Shown: piece by piece, positions 3,783-11,108 of the stretch
Position numbering within the stretch: the stretch's first letter is position 1
Layout: each line of letters opens with the position of its first letter
Origin: Candidatus Aenigmatarchaeota archaeon
GTDB taxonomy: Archaea; Aenigmatarchaeota; Aenigmatarchaeia; Aenigmatarchaeales; Aenigmatarchaeaceae
Reading direction: 5' to 3'
Assembly (NCBI GenBank): GCA_028715225.1
Contig: JAQUSH010000008.1
Span: forward strand, 1 to 13,748
DNA: 13,748 nt
Notes under the pieces: model-generated
What the model saw: only the letters and a program-made list of their open reading frames with translations
What the model was told of the DNA's origin: nothing
Database searches by the model: none
Position numbers and translations under genes: made by a program

Positions 3783-3790
3783 TTTATATA
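3783..3790 (+). promoter_or_regulatory. TATA box of the 3830-cdc48 operon
   Basis: TTTATATA, with the predicted transcription start about 25-28 bases downstream, near 3812-3815. This leaves a short leader of roughly 15-18 bases before the ATG at 3830, enough for the Shine-Dalgarno-like GAGGT seen there. Confidence 0.5.
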
Positions 3791-3814
3791 CTACCTGTAT
3801 AGTAAATTATACTA
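3787..3814 (+). repeat. TATACTA direct repeat flanking an inverted half, possible operator
   Basis: TATACTA occurs at 3787-3793 and again at 3808-3814, exactly 21 bases (two helical turns) apart. Between them, TAGTA at 3800-3804 is the inverted form of TACTA. The array starts in the TATA box and spans the predicted transcription start of the cdc48 operon, where a repressor would be expected to bind. In such AT-rich DNA it could be chance. Confidence 0.3.
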
Positions 3815-3816
3815 TT

Positions 3817-3821
3817 GAGGT
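3817..3821 (+). promoter_or_regulatory. Shine-Dalgarno-like site of the 3830 gene
   Basis: GAGGT lies 8 bases before the ATG at 3830 and complements the CACCUCC end of archaeal 16S rRNA. It is one of few clear ribosome-binding sites in a window where most first genes appear leaderless. Confidence 0.5.
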
Positions 3822-3829
3822 TGTAAAAA

Positions 3830-4234
3830 ATGAAAGTTGAAATCAAGAAGAAAGGAAACACAACTGCGATACTGATTAGTTTTGATACTCAAAATGAAAA
3901 ATTTGAATCTCCTTCCGAGAAAAGCAAATTCTTTGAAAAACTATATGGAAGAAACCAGACTATAAAAAAAGAGAAGAAAAAATATTTTTACAGAAGAACC
4001 GGTCTTATGGACGAGGTTCCGCATATCAAAGTTGATAATTCTGTTTTTATCATAGCAATGGAGCAGATGAAGATGATGGAACAGTTTATGAATGAATGGG
4101 AAGAAAAGGTAATGTTCAAAACTTTTCCTGTCTTGCTAGACGAGGAAGAGGCAGAACAATTGCAAGAAATTCCAATTCAAACAGAAGAAAGCTTCAAACC
4201 AATTGAAGTTCCTAAAAAGAAAAAAGGTGATTAA
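3830..4234 (+). CDS. Protein of unknown function, translationally coupled to cdc48
   Basis: A 134-residue protein that I cannot assign to a named family. Three parts are visible: a basic N-terminal strand region (MKVEIKKKGNTTAILISFD), a central block LYGRNQ...YFYRRTGLMDEVPHIKVDNSVFII that looks conserved and folded, and a Met/Glu-rich amphipathic helix (AMEQMKMMEQFMNEWEEKV) leading to an acidic stretch and a lysine-rich end (PKKKKGD). There is no signal peptide or membrane segment, so it is probably cytoplasmic. Its TAA directly abuts the ATG of cdc48 (TAAATG), and the GGTGA inside its last codons serves as the cdc48 ribosome-binding site, so the two should be made together. An adaptor or cofactor of Cdc48 is a reasonable guess from position alone. 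Confidence 0.8.
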   Translation: MKVEIKKKGNTTAILISFDTQNEKFESPSEKSKFFEKLYGRNQTIKKEKKKYFYRRTGLMDEVPHIKVDNSVFIIAMEQMKMMEQFMNEWEEKVMFKTFPVLLDEEEAEQLQEIPIQTEESFKPIEVPKKKKGD

Positions 4235-6541
4235 ATGACAGAGATAAAGCTTAAAGTCGGCGAATTGACACAAAGAGACGAATATGGCAAAGGAATAGCT
4301 AGAATAGATTCCAAAGACATGACAAAGCTAGGAATCAAAGAAGGAGATATCATTGACATAAATGGCAAAACAGGCGTAGTTGCTATAAGAGCATATCCTG
4401 TTGATATCGGAAAAGGAATCATTAGAATTGACGGTTTAGTCAGAAAAAATGCGCAATCACCTATAGGAGAAATGGTCACAATTAAAAAAGCTGAGATTAA
4501 AGATGCTAAAAAAATAATATTAGCTCCAGCTGAAAAAAATATTTCTATGCACATTGCTCCAAATCTTATCAAACAAAACATCTACATGCGACCTATGAGA
4601 AAAGGAGATGTTATTATTCCAAACATGGTATTCAAGAGAGAGCACGACGAAGAAGATGAAGCTCCGGTTGATCCATTTGCAGACATGCCACCTATAATCA
4701 AATCTATGCTTGGTGCAATGGGAAGTCCAATGAACAGGGGAGAAGTTTTCTTCAGCGGTCAGACAAAATTGGCTGTCGTTAAAACAGTTCCTGATGGAAT
4801 CGTGCAAATTACAGATGATACTGAAATTGAAATGAATTCAGAAGCTGTTGAAATATCAGAGATGAAAATGCCTTCTGTTACTTACGAAGACATTGGTGGT
4901 TTGAAGGAAGTAGTACCTAAGATTAGAGAAATGATTGAAGTTCCTTTAAGACATCCTGAAGTATTTGAACGATTGGGTGTCGAGCCACCAAAAGGTGTAT
5001 TACTATATGGACCTCCTGGTTCTGGTAAAACATTGTTAGCTAAAGCTGTAGCGAATGAATCAGGCGCACACTTCATATCAGTAGCTGGACCTGAGATAAT
5101 GAGCAAATGGTATGGTGGATCTGAAGAAAATCTTAGAAAAATATTTGAAGAAGCTGACAAAAACGCACCAACGATAATCTTTATTGATGAAATAGATGCT
5201 ATTGCACCAAAGAGAGAAGATGTTTCCGGAGAAGTGGAGCGCAGAGTTGTTTCACAGTTGTTAACACTTATGGACGGTCTGAAGAACAGAGGAAAGATAA
5301 TTGTTATTGCTGCTACGAACAGACCAAATGCAATCGATCAAGCATTGAGAAGAGGCGGGCGTTTTGACAGAGAAATAGAAATCGGAGTTCCTGACAAGCA
5401 AGCTAGAAAAGAAATATTGCAGATACATACTCGAAACATGCCAATGGAAAAAGAAATCAGCATTGAAGAACTTTCAGATAAAACATATGGTTATGTCGGT
5501 GCTGATTTAGCTGCTTTGGCAAAAGAATCAGCTATGTCTGCTTTGCGAAGAGTATTGCCAGAAATATCCGAATTAAAGGAAAATGAACCTATACCTAAAG
5601 AAGTTGTAAAAAAGTTGCGAGTAACTAAGGAAGACTTTGATTACGCATTGCACATGGTACAACCGTCGGCTATGAGAGAAGTAATGATAGAAGTTCCTAA
5701 GGTCAAATGGGCAGATGTTGGTGGACTGGAAGAAGTTAAAGAATCTTTGAAAGAAGCTGTTGAATGGCCTATCAAACATCCTGATAGTTTTGAAAGATTA
5801 GGAATCAAAGCACCTAGAGGAATACTGATGTACGGACCTCCTGGATGTGGTAAGACAATGATTGCTAAAGCAGTGGCAAATGAGGCTAACGCTAATTTTA
5901 TTTCAATCAAAGGACCTGAAGTGTTCTCGAAATGGGTTGGTGAATCTGAAAAACAAATCAGAGATGTATTCAGGAGAGCAAGACAGGTAGCACCATCTAT
6001 AATTTTCATAGATGAGATAGATTCAGTTACACCAAAGAGAGGTTCAAGCGACGGTTCGCATGTAACTGAACAGGTTGTTTCACAATTGCTTACAGAAATG
6101 TCTGGTTTAGAAGATCTGAAAGGTGTTGTAGTTTTAGCTGCAACAAACAGACCAGATATAGTTGATCCAGCTTTGTTAAGACCTGGACGGTTTGATAAAA
6201 TGATTTATGTGCCAGCACCTGATGAAAAAACAAGATTAGAGATATTGAAGGTGCATACTAAGAACATGCCATTGAAAGGTGTAGACATAAAGAAGATTGC
6301 TACAAAAACAGAAGGATACAGTGGAGCTGATCTTGAAGCATTAGTTAGAGAAGCTGCACTGATTTCACTTAGAGAAGACATCAAATCTAAGGAAGTAACA
6401 AATAAACATTTAGAAAGTGCTTTCAAAAAAATCAAGCCATCAATAACAGACGATATGTTTAAGAAATATCAGAAAGTTGTTGAAGAGCTGAAGAAGACTA
6501 AGCTTGAAGAAGAGAGCAAGGCTAGCCGATATATCGGTTAG
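4235..6541 (+). CDS. cdc48: AAA+ ATPase Cdc48/VAT (p97 family)
   Basis: A 768-residue hexameric unfoldase of the Cdc48/p97/VAT family, which pulls proteins through its pore by ATP hydrolysis and can feed the archaeal proteasome. The N-domain spans about residues 1-200. D1 has Walker A GPPGSGKT (259-266), Walker B IIFIDEID (Asp318-Glu319), pore loop SKWYGGSE and an RRGGRFDRE arginine-finger region. D2 has Walker A GPPGCGKT (534-541), Walker B IIFIDEID (Asp593-Glu594), pore loop SKWVGESE and RPGRFDK. Both ATP sites look complete. Compared with typical archaeal members (about 745 residues), there is an extra segment at about 136-168, an acidic stretch then [19 protein letters not shown], inside the N-domain. 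The end (SRYIG) is not a strict HbYX proteasome-docking motif. GGTGA at 4226-4230 supplies a ribosome-binding site 4 bases before the ATG. Confidence 0.97.
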
Positions 6542-6960: not shown

Positions 6961-8241
6961 ATGCCTAAGTTGAAAAGAGAACTTGGTTTATTTGAAATTA
7001 CAATGTACGGCGTAGGAATAATTCTAGGTGCTGGAATTTATGCGCTTATTGGAAAAGCAGCAGGCGTAGCTGGTAACGCACTCTGGATGGCGTTTTTAAT
7101 CGGTGCAGTCATAGCATCTCTTACAGGTTTAAGCTATGCTGAACTTGGTTCTATGTTTCCAAAAGAAGCAGCTGAATATATTTATACAAAAAAAGCATTC
7201 AAAAAACCTGCTTTGTCATTTTTGATAGGATGGTTGATTATAGCAACATCTCTGATATCTGCAGCAGCTGTAGCATTAGGATTTGGCGGATATCTGAACG
7301 GATTAACTGGTTTTCCGATTGTTCCTAGCGCAGTAGGTCTGATTATAGCATGCTCGTTTTTGAATTTTTACGGAATGAAGCAGTCAGCTAAAATGAACAT
7401 AGTATTTACTCTTATAGAACTTTTAGGTCTTTTGATCATACTTTTCATAGGAATTCCTCACTGGGGTTCTGTTGATTATTTTGAAATGCCAAACGGATTT
7501 CCAGGCATATTTGCAGCAGCAGTTCTGATATTTTTCGCATATCTTGGATTTGAAGACATAGTCAATGTATCTGAAGAAACGAGAAAACCAACAAAAGTTA
7601 TTCCTAAAGCAATCATAATTTCAGTCATAATAACAACAATAATCTATATGCTGGTTTCAATATCAGCTGTCAGTGTTGTTTCATGGGATGTTCTTGGCCA
7701 ATCTTCTGCTCCGTTAGCAGATGTTGCAGCAACTGCTCTGCCAGGTTCAGGTTTCTGGCTGTCAGTTATAGCTTTGTTTGCAACAGCTAATACCGTATTG
7801 ATTATCTTGATAGTTCATTCCAGAATGCTTTGGGGAATGGCTAAAGACGGCTCTCTTCCTAAAATATTGTCTAAAATACATCCAACAAGATATACACCGC
7901 ATGTGGCTGTATTTTTGGCTATGATAGCATGCATAGCTTTTGCTCTCAGCGGAAACATAAAAGCTGTTGCTGAGATAACTGACATCGGAGCATTTTTGAT
8001 ATTCATATCTGTTAATGCTGCTCTGATTTACATGAGATATACTCTTCCTAAATTCAGAAGACCTTTCAAGGTTCCTTTCAGTATAGGAAAGATGCCAATT
8101 CTTCCATTGCTAGGTTTGCTGTTTTGCGCCTACATGCTGACGCACTTTGAAACAAGAATAATGCTGATAGGATTGCTGATTACTGTTGTTGGTGTAGTGT
8201 TGTATTATTTTATGAAGAAATACAAAATGATTAAAGTTTAG
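6961..8241 (+). CDS. APC-superfamily amino-acid permease
   Basis: A 426-residue integral membrane protein of the amino acid/polyamine/organocation (APC) family, which imports or exchanges amino acids using an ion gradient. The first membrane helix contains the substrate-binding signature ILGAGIYALIG (about residues 21-31). TM2 follows with the typical LSYAELGSMFPKEAAEYIY. The conserved IFFAYLGFEDIVNVSEETRKPTKVIPKA lies in the middle (residues about 195-222 are its key span). About 12 hydrophobic segments can be counted, the usual number. The substrate cannot be read from the sequence. The start follows a TATA box by about 28 bases. The 3' end overlaps the end of the convergent methionine aminopeptidase gene by 11 bases. 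Confidence 0.92.
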   Translation: MPKLKRELGLFEITMYGVGIILGAGIYALIGKAAGVAGNALWMAFLIGAVIASLTGLSYAELGSMFPKEAAEYIYTKKAFKKPALSFLIGWLIIATSLISAAAVALGFGGYLNGLTGFPIVPSAVGLIIACSFLNFYGMKQSAKMNIVFTLIELLGLLIILFIGIPHWGSVDYFEMPNGFPGIFAAAVLIFFAYLGFEDIVNVSEETRKPTKVIPKAIIISVIITTIIYMLVSISAVSVVSWDVLGQSSAPLADVAATALPGSGFWLSVIALFATANTVLIILIVHSRMLWGMAKDGSLPKILSKIHPTRYTPHVAVFLAMIACIAFALSGNIKAVAEITDIGAFLIFISVNAALIYMRYTLPKFRRPFKVPFSIGKMPILPLLGLLFCAYMLTHFETRIMLIGLLITVVGVVLYYFMKKYKMIKV

Positions 8242-9112
8242 TTGTAATAATCGGAACTTCACCGACTATTATTGTGTGTTCTGTTTGCGCGACTGGCTTT
8301 TCAGAAACTTCTTTTAATGGATAATAAGGATGTATTGCGTTTAACTGTATTAGCTGTTTTAATATCATGTCTAATTTCAATTTAGAAATACCGGTAATCC
8401 ATCTTTTTGCAAACGGCAGTCTGGAAAAATCATTTCTGGCTAACTCTAAAACTTTCCTTCCTTCAGGCGTTCTAAGAGGCCGATCGTTTAGCCATCTAAA
8501 TATCTCAGCTTGTCCTGAATCTTTGACTTGTCCTGCTCCGGATGTGCAGAACGGTTCAACTGCGTAAATTTCTCCTTCTCTTATCTGATATCTTGAATCT
8601 GTTTTTATGTTTGGCACTGTCATGCCTGCATGCAGATCAAATCTGCTAAGACTATGTCCTGTAAGATTCCTGACTGGATTGAAACCAAACTGCTTTGCAG
8701 TTTCTTCTATAACTTCACCTATCTCTCCGATAGTTGTGCCAGGTTTCATTACTCTTATTGCGTTTTCTAGCATTTTCTCAGAACATATGATTAAATCATC
8801 TTTTCCTGCTGGACGAATCGTGACAGCTGTGTCGCCAATAAATCCATCAACATGCGCACCTACGTCCAGTTTGACATAATCTTCTGCTTTGATTTCTGTT
8901 TTATCATCTATCAACGGTGTGTAATGTGCAGACAGTTCATTTATAGAAATATTAACTGGAAACGCCGGACGACCGCCTAGTTGTATTATTTTATGTTCTA
9001 CGGCGTTAGCTATATCTAAAAGTCTGGCTCCCGGCTTTATCATCTTGGCTCCAAGTTGCAGAGCTTCTGCTGTTATTCTTCCTGCTTTCTTGTACATTTC
9101 AATATCATTCAT
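8231..9112 (-). CDS. map: Methionine aminopeptidase, type II
   Basis: A 293-residue enzyme that removes the initiator methionine from new proteins. The pita-bread fold and all five metal ligands are visible: Asp83 (KLDVGAHVDG), Asp94 (FIGDTAVT), His153 (TGHSLSRFDLHAG), Glu186 (YAVEPF) and Glu278 (QTEHTI). His63 in SAHYTP is the conserved substrate-side histidine. The insertion between the His153 and Glu278 segments (NDFSRLPFAKRWI...) marks type II, the archaeal and eukaryotic form. The length is normal for archaeal enzymes. Its ATG overlaps the end of the PolB-C gene by 8 bases, so the two are probably one transcript with coupled translation. No separate promoter is seen. Confidence 0.97.
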   Translation of the reverse strand: MNDIEMYKKAGRITAEALQLGAKMIKPGARLLDIANAVEHKIIQLGGRPAFPVNISINELSAHYTPLIDDKTEIKAEDYVKLDVGAHVDGFIGDTAVTIRPAGKDDLIICSEKMLENAIRVMKPGTTIGEIGEVIEETAKQFGFNPVRNLTGHSLSRFDLHAGMTVPNIKTDSRYQIREGEIYAVEPFCTSGAGQVKDSGQAEIFRWLNDRPLRTPEGRKVLELARNDFSRLPFAKRWITGISKLKLDMILKQLIQLNAIHPYYPLKEVSEKPVAQTEHTIIVGEVPIITTKL

Positions 9113-10199
9113 TCAAATCTTTCTCTTTAACATTAAAGACACTCAAAACTCTTAAAGCTGACGGGATGATTTGATTTTCAATATAATATTTTTCATCAAT
9201 GTTCTTTATTTTAACTTTGTTAAATGATTCTGCTCTCTCTGAGTATGAACCCTTTCCTTTAGTTATTATGAATTTAACAGTTGTTCCGACTTTAACATTT
9301 CCTATCTTTTTAGCTACTCTAACATGTGCTCCTATGTTTTTGTATTCTGATATTGGTTTTGTAAGCTGAACAGTTATTATTAAGTCTGTTAATTTTATTT
9401 TATGCTGCTTTACTTTTTTGATAGTATTTTTCACGTAGTTTACTGCTTTAAGTTTTTGGTTATTTAGAACGAACTTTAAGACTTCTGTCTGCATGTTTTT
9501 TGCTAGTGAACACCAGTCTTCTCTGCGAGTTTCGAAACCACGTATTGTCATTTCTCCTTTTCCGTTCATTAAAGCATATTTCTTTTTTGCACCACGACCG
9601 GTCTTAGTTGTAACGAACAGACCTTTTTTGTATGTTCCACGATATTCTAATTTGATTATACCAGGCAGATCGTTGTTTACTTTCTTTAAAAATTTCATTA
9701 CTTTCTTCTGATTTCCTGATAAGAATACTGAATCAGTGTCTGAGTAAATGACTCTGAAGCCTTCTTCTTGTGCTTTAAGTATTACCATTTGTATGTAGCT
9801 TCTTCCGAATGCTGAAATCGATTCAGCGCACTCCACGCTGTAGTATGGGCTGTTCCTGTAACCGAAATAGCCGTAAGCTATGTTTGCTGCCAGCTTAAGC
9901 TGCTTTTCTTTTTTAGCTAACTTTTCATCATACTTCTTTTCTAGCTTCTTTTTTATTTCCCACCTATCTTCTAAAATCTTCTTTATCCGTTTTGGTATTG
10001 GAGCTATCTTATCCTGGCAGAACCACCTGTTAAATCCAGGAACCATTACTTTGGTTTTGCATTGTTTGTTAAGAGTAGTTGGATCGATGTTATGAGTGAC
10101 TATTATAGAAGGATACAAATTCCTGAAATCTAAGACAATTATGTTTTTATGTATGCCTGTGATAGGCTCTTTGACATAACCGCCTTTGTACTGACGCAT
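9105..10199 (-). CDS. Family B DNA polymerase, C-terminal (palm-fingers-thumb) subunit of a split enzyme
   Basis: A 364-residue protein corresponding only to the polymerase half of archaeal PolB (full enzymes are about 775-800 residues). It starts at the YKGGYVKEP motif, the linker between the exonuclease and polymerase domains. Motif A is DFRNLYPSII with Asp24. Motif B is KLAANIAYG with Lys102, Asn106 and Tyr109; Ile follows Asn where Ser is usual. Motif C is YSDTDS with Asp154 and Asp156. TTKTGRGAKKKYAL matches the family's KKRYA-type segment, and the thumb runs to the end. All catalytic acidic residues are present. No exonuclease motifs occur anywhere in the window, so the N-terminal half must be encoded elsewhere. 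The ATG has its own TATA box 27 bases upstream, and the in-frame sequence before it is not PolB-like, which argues for a natural split. No clear PIP box is seen at the C-terminus. It runs into map. Confidence 0.93.
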   Translation of the reverse strand: MRQYKGGYVKEPITGIHKNIIVLDFRNLYPSIIVTHNIDPTTLNKQCKTKVMVPGFNRWFCQDKIAPIPKRIKKILEDRWEIKKKLEKKYDEKLAKKEKQLKLAANIAYGYFGYRNSPYYSVECAESISAFGRSYIQMVILKAQEEGFRVIYSDTDSVFLSGNQKKVMKFLKKVNNDLPGIIKLEYRGTYKKGLFVTTKTGRGAKKKYALMNGKGEMTIRGFETRREDWCSLAKNMQTEVLKFVLNNQKLKAVNYVKNTIKKVKQHKIKLTDLIITVQLTKPISEYKNIGAHVRVAKKIGNVKVGTTVKFIITKGKGSYSERAESFNKVKIKNIDEKYYIENQIIPSALRVLSVFNVKEKDLNE

Positions 10200-10295: not shown

Positions 10296-11108
10296 TTATA
10301 TTCTTGGTAGACTAGCCCAGTTGAAAGCTTCTCGTAGTATATTATAATTCTTGTTTTCTTTTTCTATCGGCATAAAGGCAACGATTTGCATACTATCCCC
10401 GTAATGTTCAGGATGAACTATTACGTGTGGATCACCAAAACGATCTCCATTAAGTTTGTATCCAGTTGTTGCAAAAATATCAATCGGTTCTTTATGAATA
10501 CATCCATTTTTAAATTCATCATTCATACGTCCATATATAAATTTATCAACACCAAGTGTGCCAATCTCAGTTAAACTTAATTTTCTGCTCGATGATTTGT
10601 CGTTGCACGTACTTTTAACACCGATTTCTCTCAAACTGACAAAGTTTTGGCGTATGTGATTATATCTAATAGAAACAACAGGAATCATAATTTCACTTTC
10701 ACATTTCTTTTTTCTAGGAACATATTTTGAAGGAAGGTTATCAGTACTATCCTCATGCATTATTTCTGGGATTATACAAGTTCTAAAATCTTCAGAGGTG
10801 TATCCATGTTCTTCATCACCAGTCCCATCTCCGGGACCAAACAATACCAGAGTAGCATTTGCTATTTTCCTTTCCTTATTATCATAAGAAAATTTAAGAG
10901 TCGTTTCACCTCTAGCAGTATATCCTTTATTTTTAGCTTTTTTCATTTTATGCGTATTAGAAAAGTTAATAAATAGTTGGTGTGGCGGGTTTGTTCTACT
11001 ATTCATTATAAGTGATATATCATTTAAAGAACGCTTTATTACTGGTTGTAACGCATCAAAATCAGGATCTTTTGGAGTTCCCCATTCATACATACGATAT
11101 TCGCTCAT
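10296..11108 (-). CDS. Protein of unknown function, 270 residues
   Basis: I do not recognise this family. It is a soluble-looking, mixed alpha/beta protein without signal peptide or membrane helices. Visible points: a start MSEYRMYEWGTPKDPDFDAL, a Gly/acid-rich turn FGPGDGTGDEEHGYT near the middle, an IPEIMHEDSTDN segment, a basic KYVPRKKKCES stretch, and a C-terminal part with GDPHVIVHPEHYGDSMQIV. Several His and Asp/Glu residues cluster in the last third and could bind metal, but no HExxH or other named active-site motif is present. The ATG at 11108 has a TATA box about 27 bases upstream, with a 15-base palindrome directly before that box, so it is probably regulated. It is followed by a T-rich stretch and then the PolB-C promoter. 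Confidence 0.82.
   Translation of the reverse strand: MSEYRMYEWGTPKDPDFDALQPVIKRSLNDISLIMNSRTNPPHQLFINFSNTHKMKKAKNKGYTARGETTLKFSYDNKERKIANATLVLFGPGDGTGDEEHGYTSEDFRTCIIPEIMHEDSTDNLPSKYVPRKKKCESEIMIPVVSIRYNHIRQNFVSLREIGVKSTCNDKSSSRKLSLTEIGTLGVDKFIYGRMNDEFKNGCIHKEPIDIFATTGYKLNGDRFGDPHVIVHPEHYGDSMQIVAFMPIEKENKNYNILREAFNWASLPRI

What the first reader, a model, noticed from the sequence alone, without database searches (positions are those of the whole stretch)
9105..10199. PolB split exactly at the exonuclease/polymerase domain boundary
The gene begins at YKGGYVKEP, the linker motif between the exonuclease and polymerase domains, and carries motifs A, B and C complete with all catalytic aspartates. 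It has its own TATA box 27 bases before the ATG, and the in-frame upstream residues are not PolB-like. Split PolB enzymes are known in Methanothermobacter and Nanoarchaeum, but as I recall those splits lie inside the polymerase region, so that the small subunit holds only the motif C part. A split at the domain border would give a stand-alone polymerase module without proofreading unless a partner joins it. The comparison of split sites is from memory.
Basis: partly seen in the sequence, partly recalled or inferred. Interest (0 to 1): 0.75.

Follow-up and report, generated by a model that had tools for sequence, protein, structure and literature searches.

The report
Archaeal DNA polymerase stripped to core
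A group of tiny archaea carries a family B DNA polymerase that has lost its whole proofreading half and lives on as a conserved stand-alone catalytic core, which probably makes it an error-tolerant helper polymerase rather than half of a split enzyme.

Summary
In detail: window 9105-10199 (-) encodes a 364-aa family B polymerase beginning at YKGGYV, with intact motifs A, B and C. "Split" is not supported: this is a PolB3-type enzyme that lost its N-terminal and exonuclease domains. Complete core-only proteins (32 rows, window included) form one clade (SH-aLRT 100). Of seven family genomes with a PolB3, five have the short form (one broken again) and two the full-length one. In those five the only N-half match lies in a second, proofreading-type PolB (group B6 by its tail). 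No complete free N-half was seen among 120 listed of 164 database hits. The gene is under purifying selection. The short clade carries L103 and I107 in 32 of 32 (107 is A/S in 60 of 60 full-length), at the positions of yeast Pol zeta Leu1087 and Val1091; PIP-like tails occur in 4 of 32 against 48 of 60. A Y-family domain was found in 0 of 19 of these genomes. Most likely it is a non-proofreading repair or translesion polymerase; activity is untested. Exonuclease-less PolBs are reported in viruses; my searches found no report of a cellular one.

The parts
9105..10199 (-). core-only family B (PolB3-type) DNA polymerase, 364 aa
10179..10190 (-). YKGG (YxGG motif, residues 4-7) at the very N terminus; Y4 and G6 in 32 of 32 short proteins
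10104..10130 (-). motif A DFRNLYPSI (residues 24-32), catalytic D24; steric-gate position Y29
9870..9896 (-). motif B KLAANIAYG (residues 102-110), with the clade-specific L103 and I107
9729..9746 (-). motif C YSDTDS (residues 152-157), catalytic aspartates 154 and 156
9576..9587 (-). KKKY (residues 205-208), the KKRY-type motif (name recalled)
8231..9112 (-). type II methionine aminopeptidase, overlapping the polymerase gene by 8 bases; its nearness marks the locus as the ancestral PolB3 locus

Best explanation
The gene is an archaeal PolB3 that lost its N-terminal (uracil-reading) and exonuclease domains in place, probably once, in an ancestor within its order of Aenigmatarchaeota; most of the descendants seen also lack the PIP-like (PCNA-binding) tail. 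So far this rests on sequence. It now works as a distributive, non-proofreading DNA polymerase on its own (inferred). The proofreading replicase of the cell is the second polymerase, B6 (inferred from its exonuclease motifs and from relatives in which only a B6-like match is seen). With proofreading and uracil read-ahead removed, and with two nascent-base-pair residues changed towards those of Pol zeta, the core most likely fills gaps and extends past damaged or mismatched primer ends in cells that show no Y-family polymerase domain (inferred).
Against: No activity was measured. The motif B signature belongs to one clade, so it may be a single event, and it is not specific to exonuclease loss: two exonuclease-bearing relatives read KLLANVSYG (P0112, P0113). 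Full-length and PolB3-less relatives among the 19 genomes lack the Y-family domain too. Four or five short proteins keep a PIP-like tail (P0015, P0016, P0023, P0025, perhaps P0030). The AU test rejects short forms plus G004 and G006 as an exclusive clade (p 0.007) although these genomes are placed in one family; short forms inside the order are not rejected (p 0.225). In the B6 tree G002 falls apart from the other four short-form genomes, with weak support. So the exact point and number of losses is open.
Confidence: 0.6

Rival explanations
1. Split enzyme: the N-terminal/exonuclease half is encoded elsewhere, or B6 or another nuclease proofreads for it in trans.
For: Split PolBs exist in archaea (PMC4104785, passages), and a number of 584-606-aa relatives end just after motif C. 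The five genomes are only 84-93% complete. P0128 (381 aa, 60% identical, no PF00136 domain) looks at first like a free N-half.
Against: Nothing beyond the second PolB was found in 5 short-form genomes by methods that find that paralogue at 25-30% identity. No complete free N-half ending before YxGG was seen among the 120 listed of 164 hits; P0128, P0148, P0171 and P0179 stop earlier in mid-domain and P0138 runs past YxGG. By eye, no neighbour other than the aminopeptidase is shared by the five loci. A nuclease in trans cannot be excluded.
Confidence: 0.12
2. Pol alpha-like role: a proofreading-free core that extends primers before B6 takes over.
Against: No primase gene was noticed at the locus (ORFs read by eye), and many relatives show no PolB3. 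Motif B has Pol zeta-like letters at two positions; Pol alpha's letters were not looked at.
Confidence: 0.18
3. Decaying gene on its way to loss.
For: Reduction of domains and tail, and no PolB3 match in other members of the class; the G005 copy is broken again.
Against: Catalytic residues 32 of 32, low dN/dS, and a clade that spans down to 43% identity.
Confidence: 0.05
4. Assembly break, frameshift, or a gene of a virus or mobile element.
For: The window is a whole contig of a 104-contig MAG with 5.45% contamination.
Against: The same boundary recurs in independent genomes and some 30 database proteins, G001 carries the same pair of polymerases, and the best of the 80 listed viral matches (263 found) is 33% identical.
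Confidence: 0.02

Closest known systems
Archaeal PolB3 group (KOD, Pfu, 9 deg N polymerases)
   Same: Polymerase core, motifs A/B/C, YxGG; 42% identity over 356 residues to KOD mutant 8s84
   Different: N-terminal and exonuclease domains absent; motif B L103/I107; mostly no PIP-like tail
Split PolB of Methanobacteriales and Nanoarchaeum equitans
   Same: An archaeal PolB3 that is not one full-length polypeptide (PMC4104785, passages)
   Different: There both parts are kept, and Methanobacterium-type large parts end after motif C (the Nanoarchaeum site is recalled, not checked); here the cut is at the exonuclease border and no second part is found
Eukaryotic Pol zeta (Rev3)
   Same: No proofreading; Leu and a branched residue at the same motif B positions
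   Different: Rev3 keeps an inactive exonuclease domain and an N-terminal domain (PMC8881453, passages) and belongs to the Delta-like clade (PMC7544198, passages)
Mavirus and polinton-like-virus pPolB
   Same: PolB that lost most or all of the exonuclease domain (PMC11071308, passages)
   Different: Protein-primed, viral, with other N-terminal domains and a helicase gained; here a cellular archaeal enzyme of the PolB3 type with nothing added (a gained helicase was not looked for)
Archaeal PolB2
   Same: Variant PolB linked to lesion bypass (PMC7544198 section 15)
   Different: PolB2 has altered exonuclease and motif C residues; here the polymerase motifs are intact and the exonuclease domain is gone

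Membership tests
Family B DNA polymerase (polymerase domain) | PF00136 match and motifs A, B and C with catalytic aspartates | tested here: met
   E 2.8e-51; D24, D154, D156, K102, N106 invariant
PolB3 group | groups with archaeal PolB3 in a tree against the other PolB groups | tested here: inconclusive
   nested among 62 longer relatives including Thermoproteota, best PDB hits KOD/Pfu-type, much closer to these than to the B6-like paralogue; but no B1, B2 or B6 rows were in the tree, and the group label rests on papers
PolB3 group | N-terminal and 3'-5' exonuclease domains | tested here: not met
   no PF03104 match in the protein; alignment starts at residue 382 of KOD-type enzymes
PolB3 group | PIP-like motif at the C terminus | tested here: not met
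   window protein ends KEKDLNE; 4 of 32 short vs 48 of 60 longer rows match a loose PIP pattern
Split archaeal PolB | complementary second subunit encoded in the same genome | tested here: not met
   only the N-half of the second PolB is found in five short-form genomes of 84-93% completeness
Split archaeal PolB | break near motif C | tested here: not met
   Methanobacterium-type large parts end after motif C; the window break is 20 residues before motif A
Translesion polymerase like Pol zeta | lesion bypass or mismatch extension | not testable with these tools
   only residue correspondence
PolB2 | missing first Asp of motif C (PMC7544198) | tested here: not met
   DTD intact in 32 of 32

The most novel reading that the evidence does not exclude
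A cellular archaeal replicative polymerase turned into a Pol zeta-like translesion enzyme by discarding its whole N-terminal and exonuclease half and reshaping its base-pair pocket, and it serves as the translesion polymerase in cells without Y-family enzymes, beside a proofreading B6 replicase.
Probability: 0.35. Interest if true: 0.8.

Novelty: new variant of a known kind. Interest (0 to 1): 0.62.

Why it matters
Pol alpha and Pol zeta keep an inactivated exonuclease domain (PMC7544198). Here the domain has been removed altogether and the core kept under selection while the clade diverged to 43% identity. That gives a 364-aa minimal family B polymerase, a natural test of which polymerase features depend on the exonuclease half (YxGG is kept without it), and a candidate answer to how Aenigmatarchaeota without detected Y-family domains tolerate damage. 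It is also a plausible small scaffold for polymerase engineering.

Tried and rejected
Split with a partner: searched with the G006 N-half, PF03104, a 16-row N-half profile and the protein database; in the five short-form genomes only the second PolB was found. P0128, P0148, P0171 and P0179 looked like free N-halves but stop mid-domain before the boundary; P0138 runs past YxGG. Exonuclease remnants near the gene: tblastn found none convincing; the lowest E outside the control was 0.033, in G002, downstream of the gene. Viral origin: listed viral relatives are at most 33% identical. TATA box: chance. DP1 by PF04042: 0 of 9, although PMC7544198 reports an inactive DP1 in Aenigmarchaeota; perhaps too diverged for that profile, not followed. 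B6 tree as a species proxy (13 rows): G000, G001, G005 and G007 cluster, G002 falls elsewhere with weak support, so it neither proves nor excludes one loss within the family.

Selection of rows: from the 118 hits, I put 30 complete short forms and 7 fragments into the tree, added G001 and G007 and 62 longer rows from loci; the other 81 hits were left out. Some of those 81 are proteins of about 350-430 aa that begin in the linker or after YxGG (for example P0039, P0040, P0047, P0051, P0083, P0092, P0096); I took them for cut or misstarted longer enzymes without being able to see their contigs. The 62 longer rows are called full-length, but a few are cut by contig ends (L009, L012, L029 at the start, L103 at the end). 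Searches use 60 of the 62, L099 and L108 (long branches) left out, and no fragments. The PIP test is a loose pattern: it counted P0034 (doubtful) and missed P0025; L103, cut at its end, counts as without a tail. One search was translated in the wrong frame and not used. The threshold (1e-62) can miss intein-bearing PolB3s, so its 69 of 156 without a match is an upper bound for absence. Literature: ten searches of the held open library, listings seen; none listed an exonuclease-less archaeal PolB. Subscription papers and supplements were not searched, and of PMC7544198 I saw passages and section 15 only.

Full report

It is a family, not an accident. The protein database gives 118 relatives. 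I classed 30 of them, the window's own included, as complete short forms of 340-396 aa; with G001 and G007 from the genomes that makes 32 rows. Of these, 28 start 3-8 residues before the tyrosine of YxGG and four have predicted starts 12-30 residues before it. In the window's family, five genomes carry the short form: G000, G001, G002 and G007 with frames of 371-381 aa bounded by stops, and G005, where it is broken after motif C by about 1.2 kb holding an antisense LAGLIDADG ORF. G004 and G006 carry longer versions (G004 cut by the contig edge); G003, 42% complete, has no match. Outside the family I saw no short form in the class: 87 of 156 genomes match at E 1e-62 or better, and the only frames under 650 aa there belong to G014, G028, G085 and G136; G014 and G028 are cut by contig edges, G085 and G136 were not inspected.

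It is domain loss, not a split. In longer relatives the part before YxGG is about 350-476 residues. Searched with that of G006, each of the five short-form genomes gives one match, in the second PolB, at 26-29% identity (its frame is 890-895 aa in G000, G001 and G002, 1317 aa in G007 with a probable intein, and cut by the contig end in G005); G004, the control in the family, gives extra matches at 56-60%, and G008-G011 and G016 at 42-48%. PF03104 and a 16-row profile give the same picture. If the five completeness values (84-93%) are taken as independent, missing a real partner in all five would have a chance of about 2 in 100,000 (my estimate). In the protein database no complete free N-half that ends before YxGG is among the 120 listed of 164 hits.

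The locus is ancestral. In G031 the order is full-length PolB, a DUF763-like gene (label recalled), methionine aminopeptidase; in G006 the aminopeptidase follows after about three genes; in the five short-form genomes it follows after 0 (G000, G001), 1 (G007), 2 (G005) or 3 (G002) genes. Only the window's aminopeptidase was named by a profile; the others I recognised by eye. So the short gene sits where the full-length gene sat.

Evolution. A tree of 101 rows puts the 32 short rows and seven fragments in one clade (SH-aLRT 100, quick method). An exclusive clade with G004 and G006 is rejected (p 0.007); a position inside the order is not (p 0.225) (46 rows). A 13-row tree of the second PolB keeps G000, G001, G005 and G007 together but not G002, with weak support. 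Catalytic residues are invariant and dN/dS between G000 and G001 is about 0.06 (NG86) to 0.10 (LWL85), with dS near saturation.

What changed with the loss. Position 107 in motif B is Ile in 32 of 32 short rows and Ala/Ser in 60 of 60 longer rows; position 103 is Leu in 32 of 32 against 4 of 60; the steric-gate position 29 is not Tyr in 6 of 32 (3 Leu, 3 Phe) against 0 of 60. This is one clade, so it may be one or a few events. The two motif B positions correspond to yeast Pol zeta Leu1087 and Val1091, which PMC8881453 names as van der Waals contacts to the nascent base pair (passages), and to RB69 L561 and S565, altered in base-selectivity mutants (PMC3799440, passages; the correspondence by motif spacing is mine). 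Against over-reading: P0112 and P0113, which have the exonuclease domain, read KLLANVSYG. PIP-like tails are found in 48 of 60 longer and 4 of 32 short rows by a loose pattern. YxGG, listed among the polymerisation-domain motifs of phi29 polymerase (PMC4974454, one passage), is kept (Y4 and G6 32 of 32), so its retention does not need the exonuclease domain.

Cell context. PMC7544198 (passages and section 15) reports that most sequenced Aenigmarchaeota lack the PolD catalytic subunit and that Aenigmarchaeota have a B6 PolB, some with a zinc-binding tail, with its own exonuclease domain. The window genome's 891-aa PolB ends in CxxC-type motifs, from which I infer B6; no tree tested it. Exonuclease I-III patterns were picked up in G000 and G007, and II and III but not a credible I in G001, G002 and G005 (patterns recalled). 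PF03833 is found in 0 of 10 genomes, PF04042 in 0 of 9 and the Y-family domain PF00817 in 0 of 19, with controls ringing in 3, 3 and 11 of 14 (for the last). Of 59 relatives, 20 show only a single B6-like match. So B6 is the likely replicase and PolB3 an accessory enzyme; both steps are inference.

Mechanism, shown and inferred. Shown by sequence: loss of the N-half, conserved catalytic core, changed base-pair pocket residues, mostly missing tail, no detectable partner. Inferred: active, distributive, non-proofreading synthesis; insensitivity to template uracil, because the N-terminal domain matters for uracil recognition in archaeal PolBs (PMC7544198); use in gap filling or translesion synthesis. 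No step of the function was tested.

Novelty. [quoted passage not shown] I found no report of a cellular one in the searches. I class it as a new variant of a known kind.

Noticed in passing
L068:3080-5462 (G005; also L146): The short polymerase gene is broken right after motif C into 178- and 210-aa frames by about 1.2 kb that holds an antisense LAGLIDADG-type ORF (3784-4926 +, PF14528 E 6.4e-8).
   Followed up: partly
proteins P0112, P0113, P0119, P0120, P0122-P0125, P0127, P0129: Close relatives of the G006 PolB3 N-half, 585-612 aa (P0129 named Aenigmatarchaeota), end just after motif C, several on long contigs (P0124 on 330 kb): apparently another lineage with PolB split at the Methanobacterium-type site.
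   Followed up: partly
proteins P0039, P0040, P0047, P0051, P0083, P0092, P0096: Further polymerase-domain proteins of about 370-430 aa from other lineages that begin in the linker or after YxGG; probably cut or misstarted genes, but a second core-only lineage is not excluded.
   Followed up: no
L001:1258-3933 (-), window genome contig C3: The second (B6-like) PolB of the window genome has Val in place of the motif B Asn (KGMLVSLYG); nine relatives printed have Asn.
   Followed up: no
window 10296-11108 (-): A 270-aa ORF upstream of the polymerase with no Pfam match; by eye no similar ORF stands upstream in the G001, G005 or G007 loci. No homology search was made.
   Followed up: no
L071:5848-9492 (-) (G001): The CDC48-like frame is 1215 aa against 768 aa in the window, probably an intein.
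   Followed up: no
L017 and L032 (G015, G013): PolB3s with shortened parts before YxGG (376 and 350 aa) and unusual letter make-up, perhaps intermediates of reduction.
   Followed up: no
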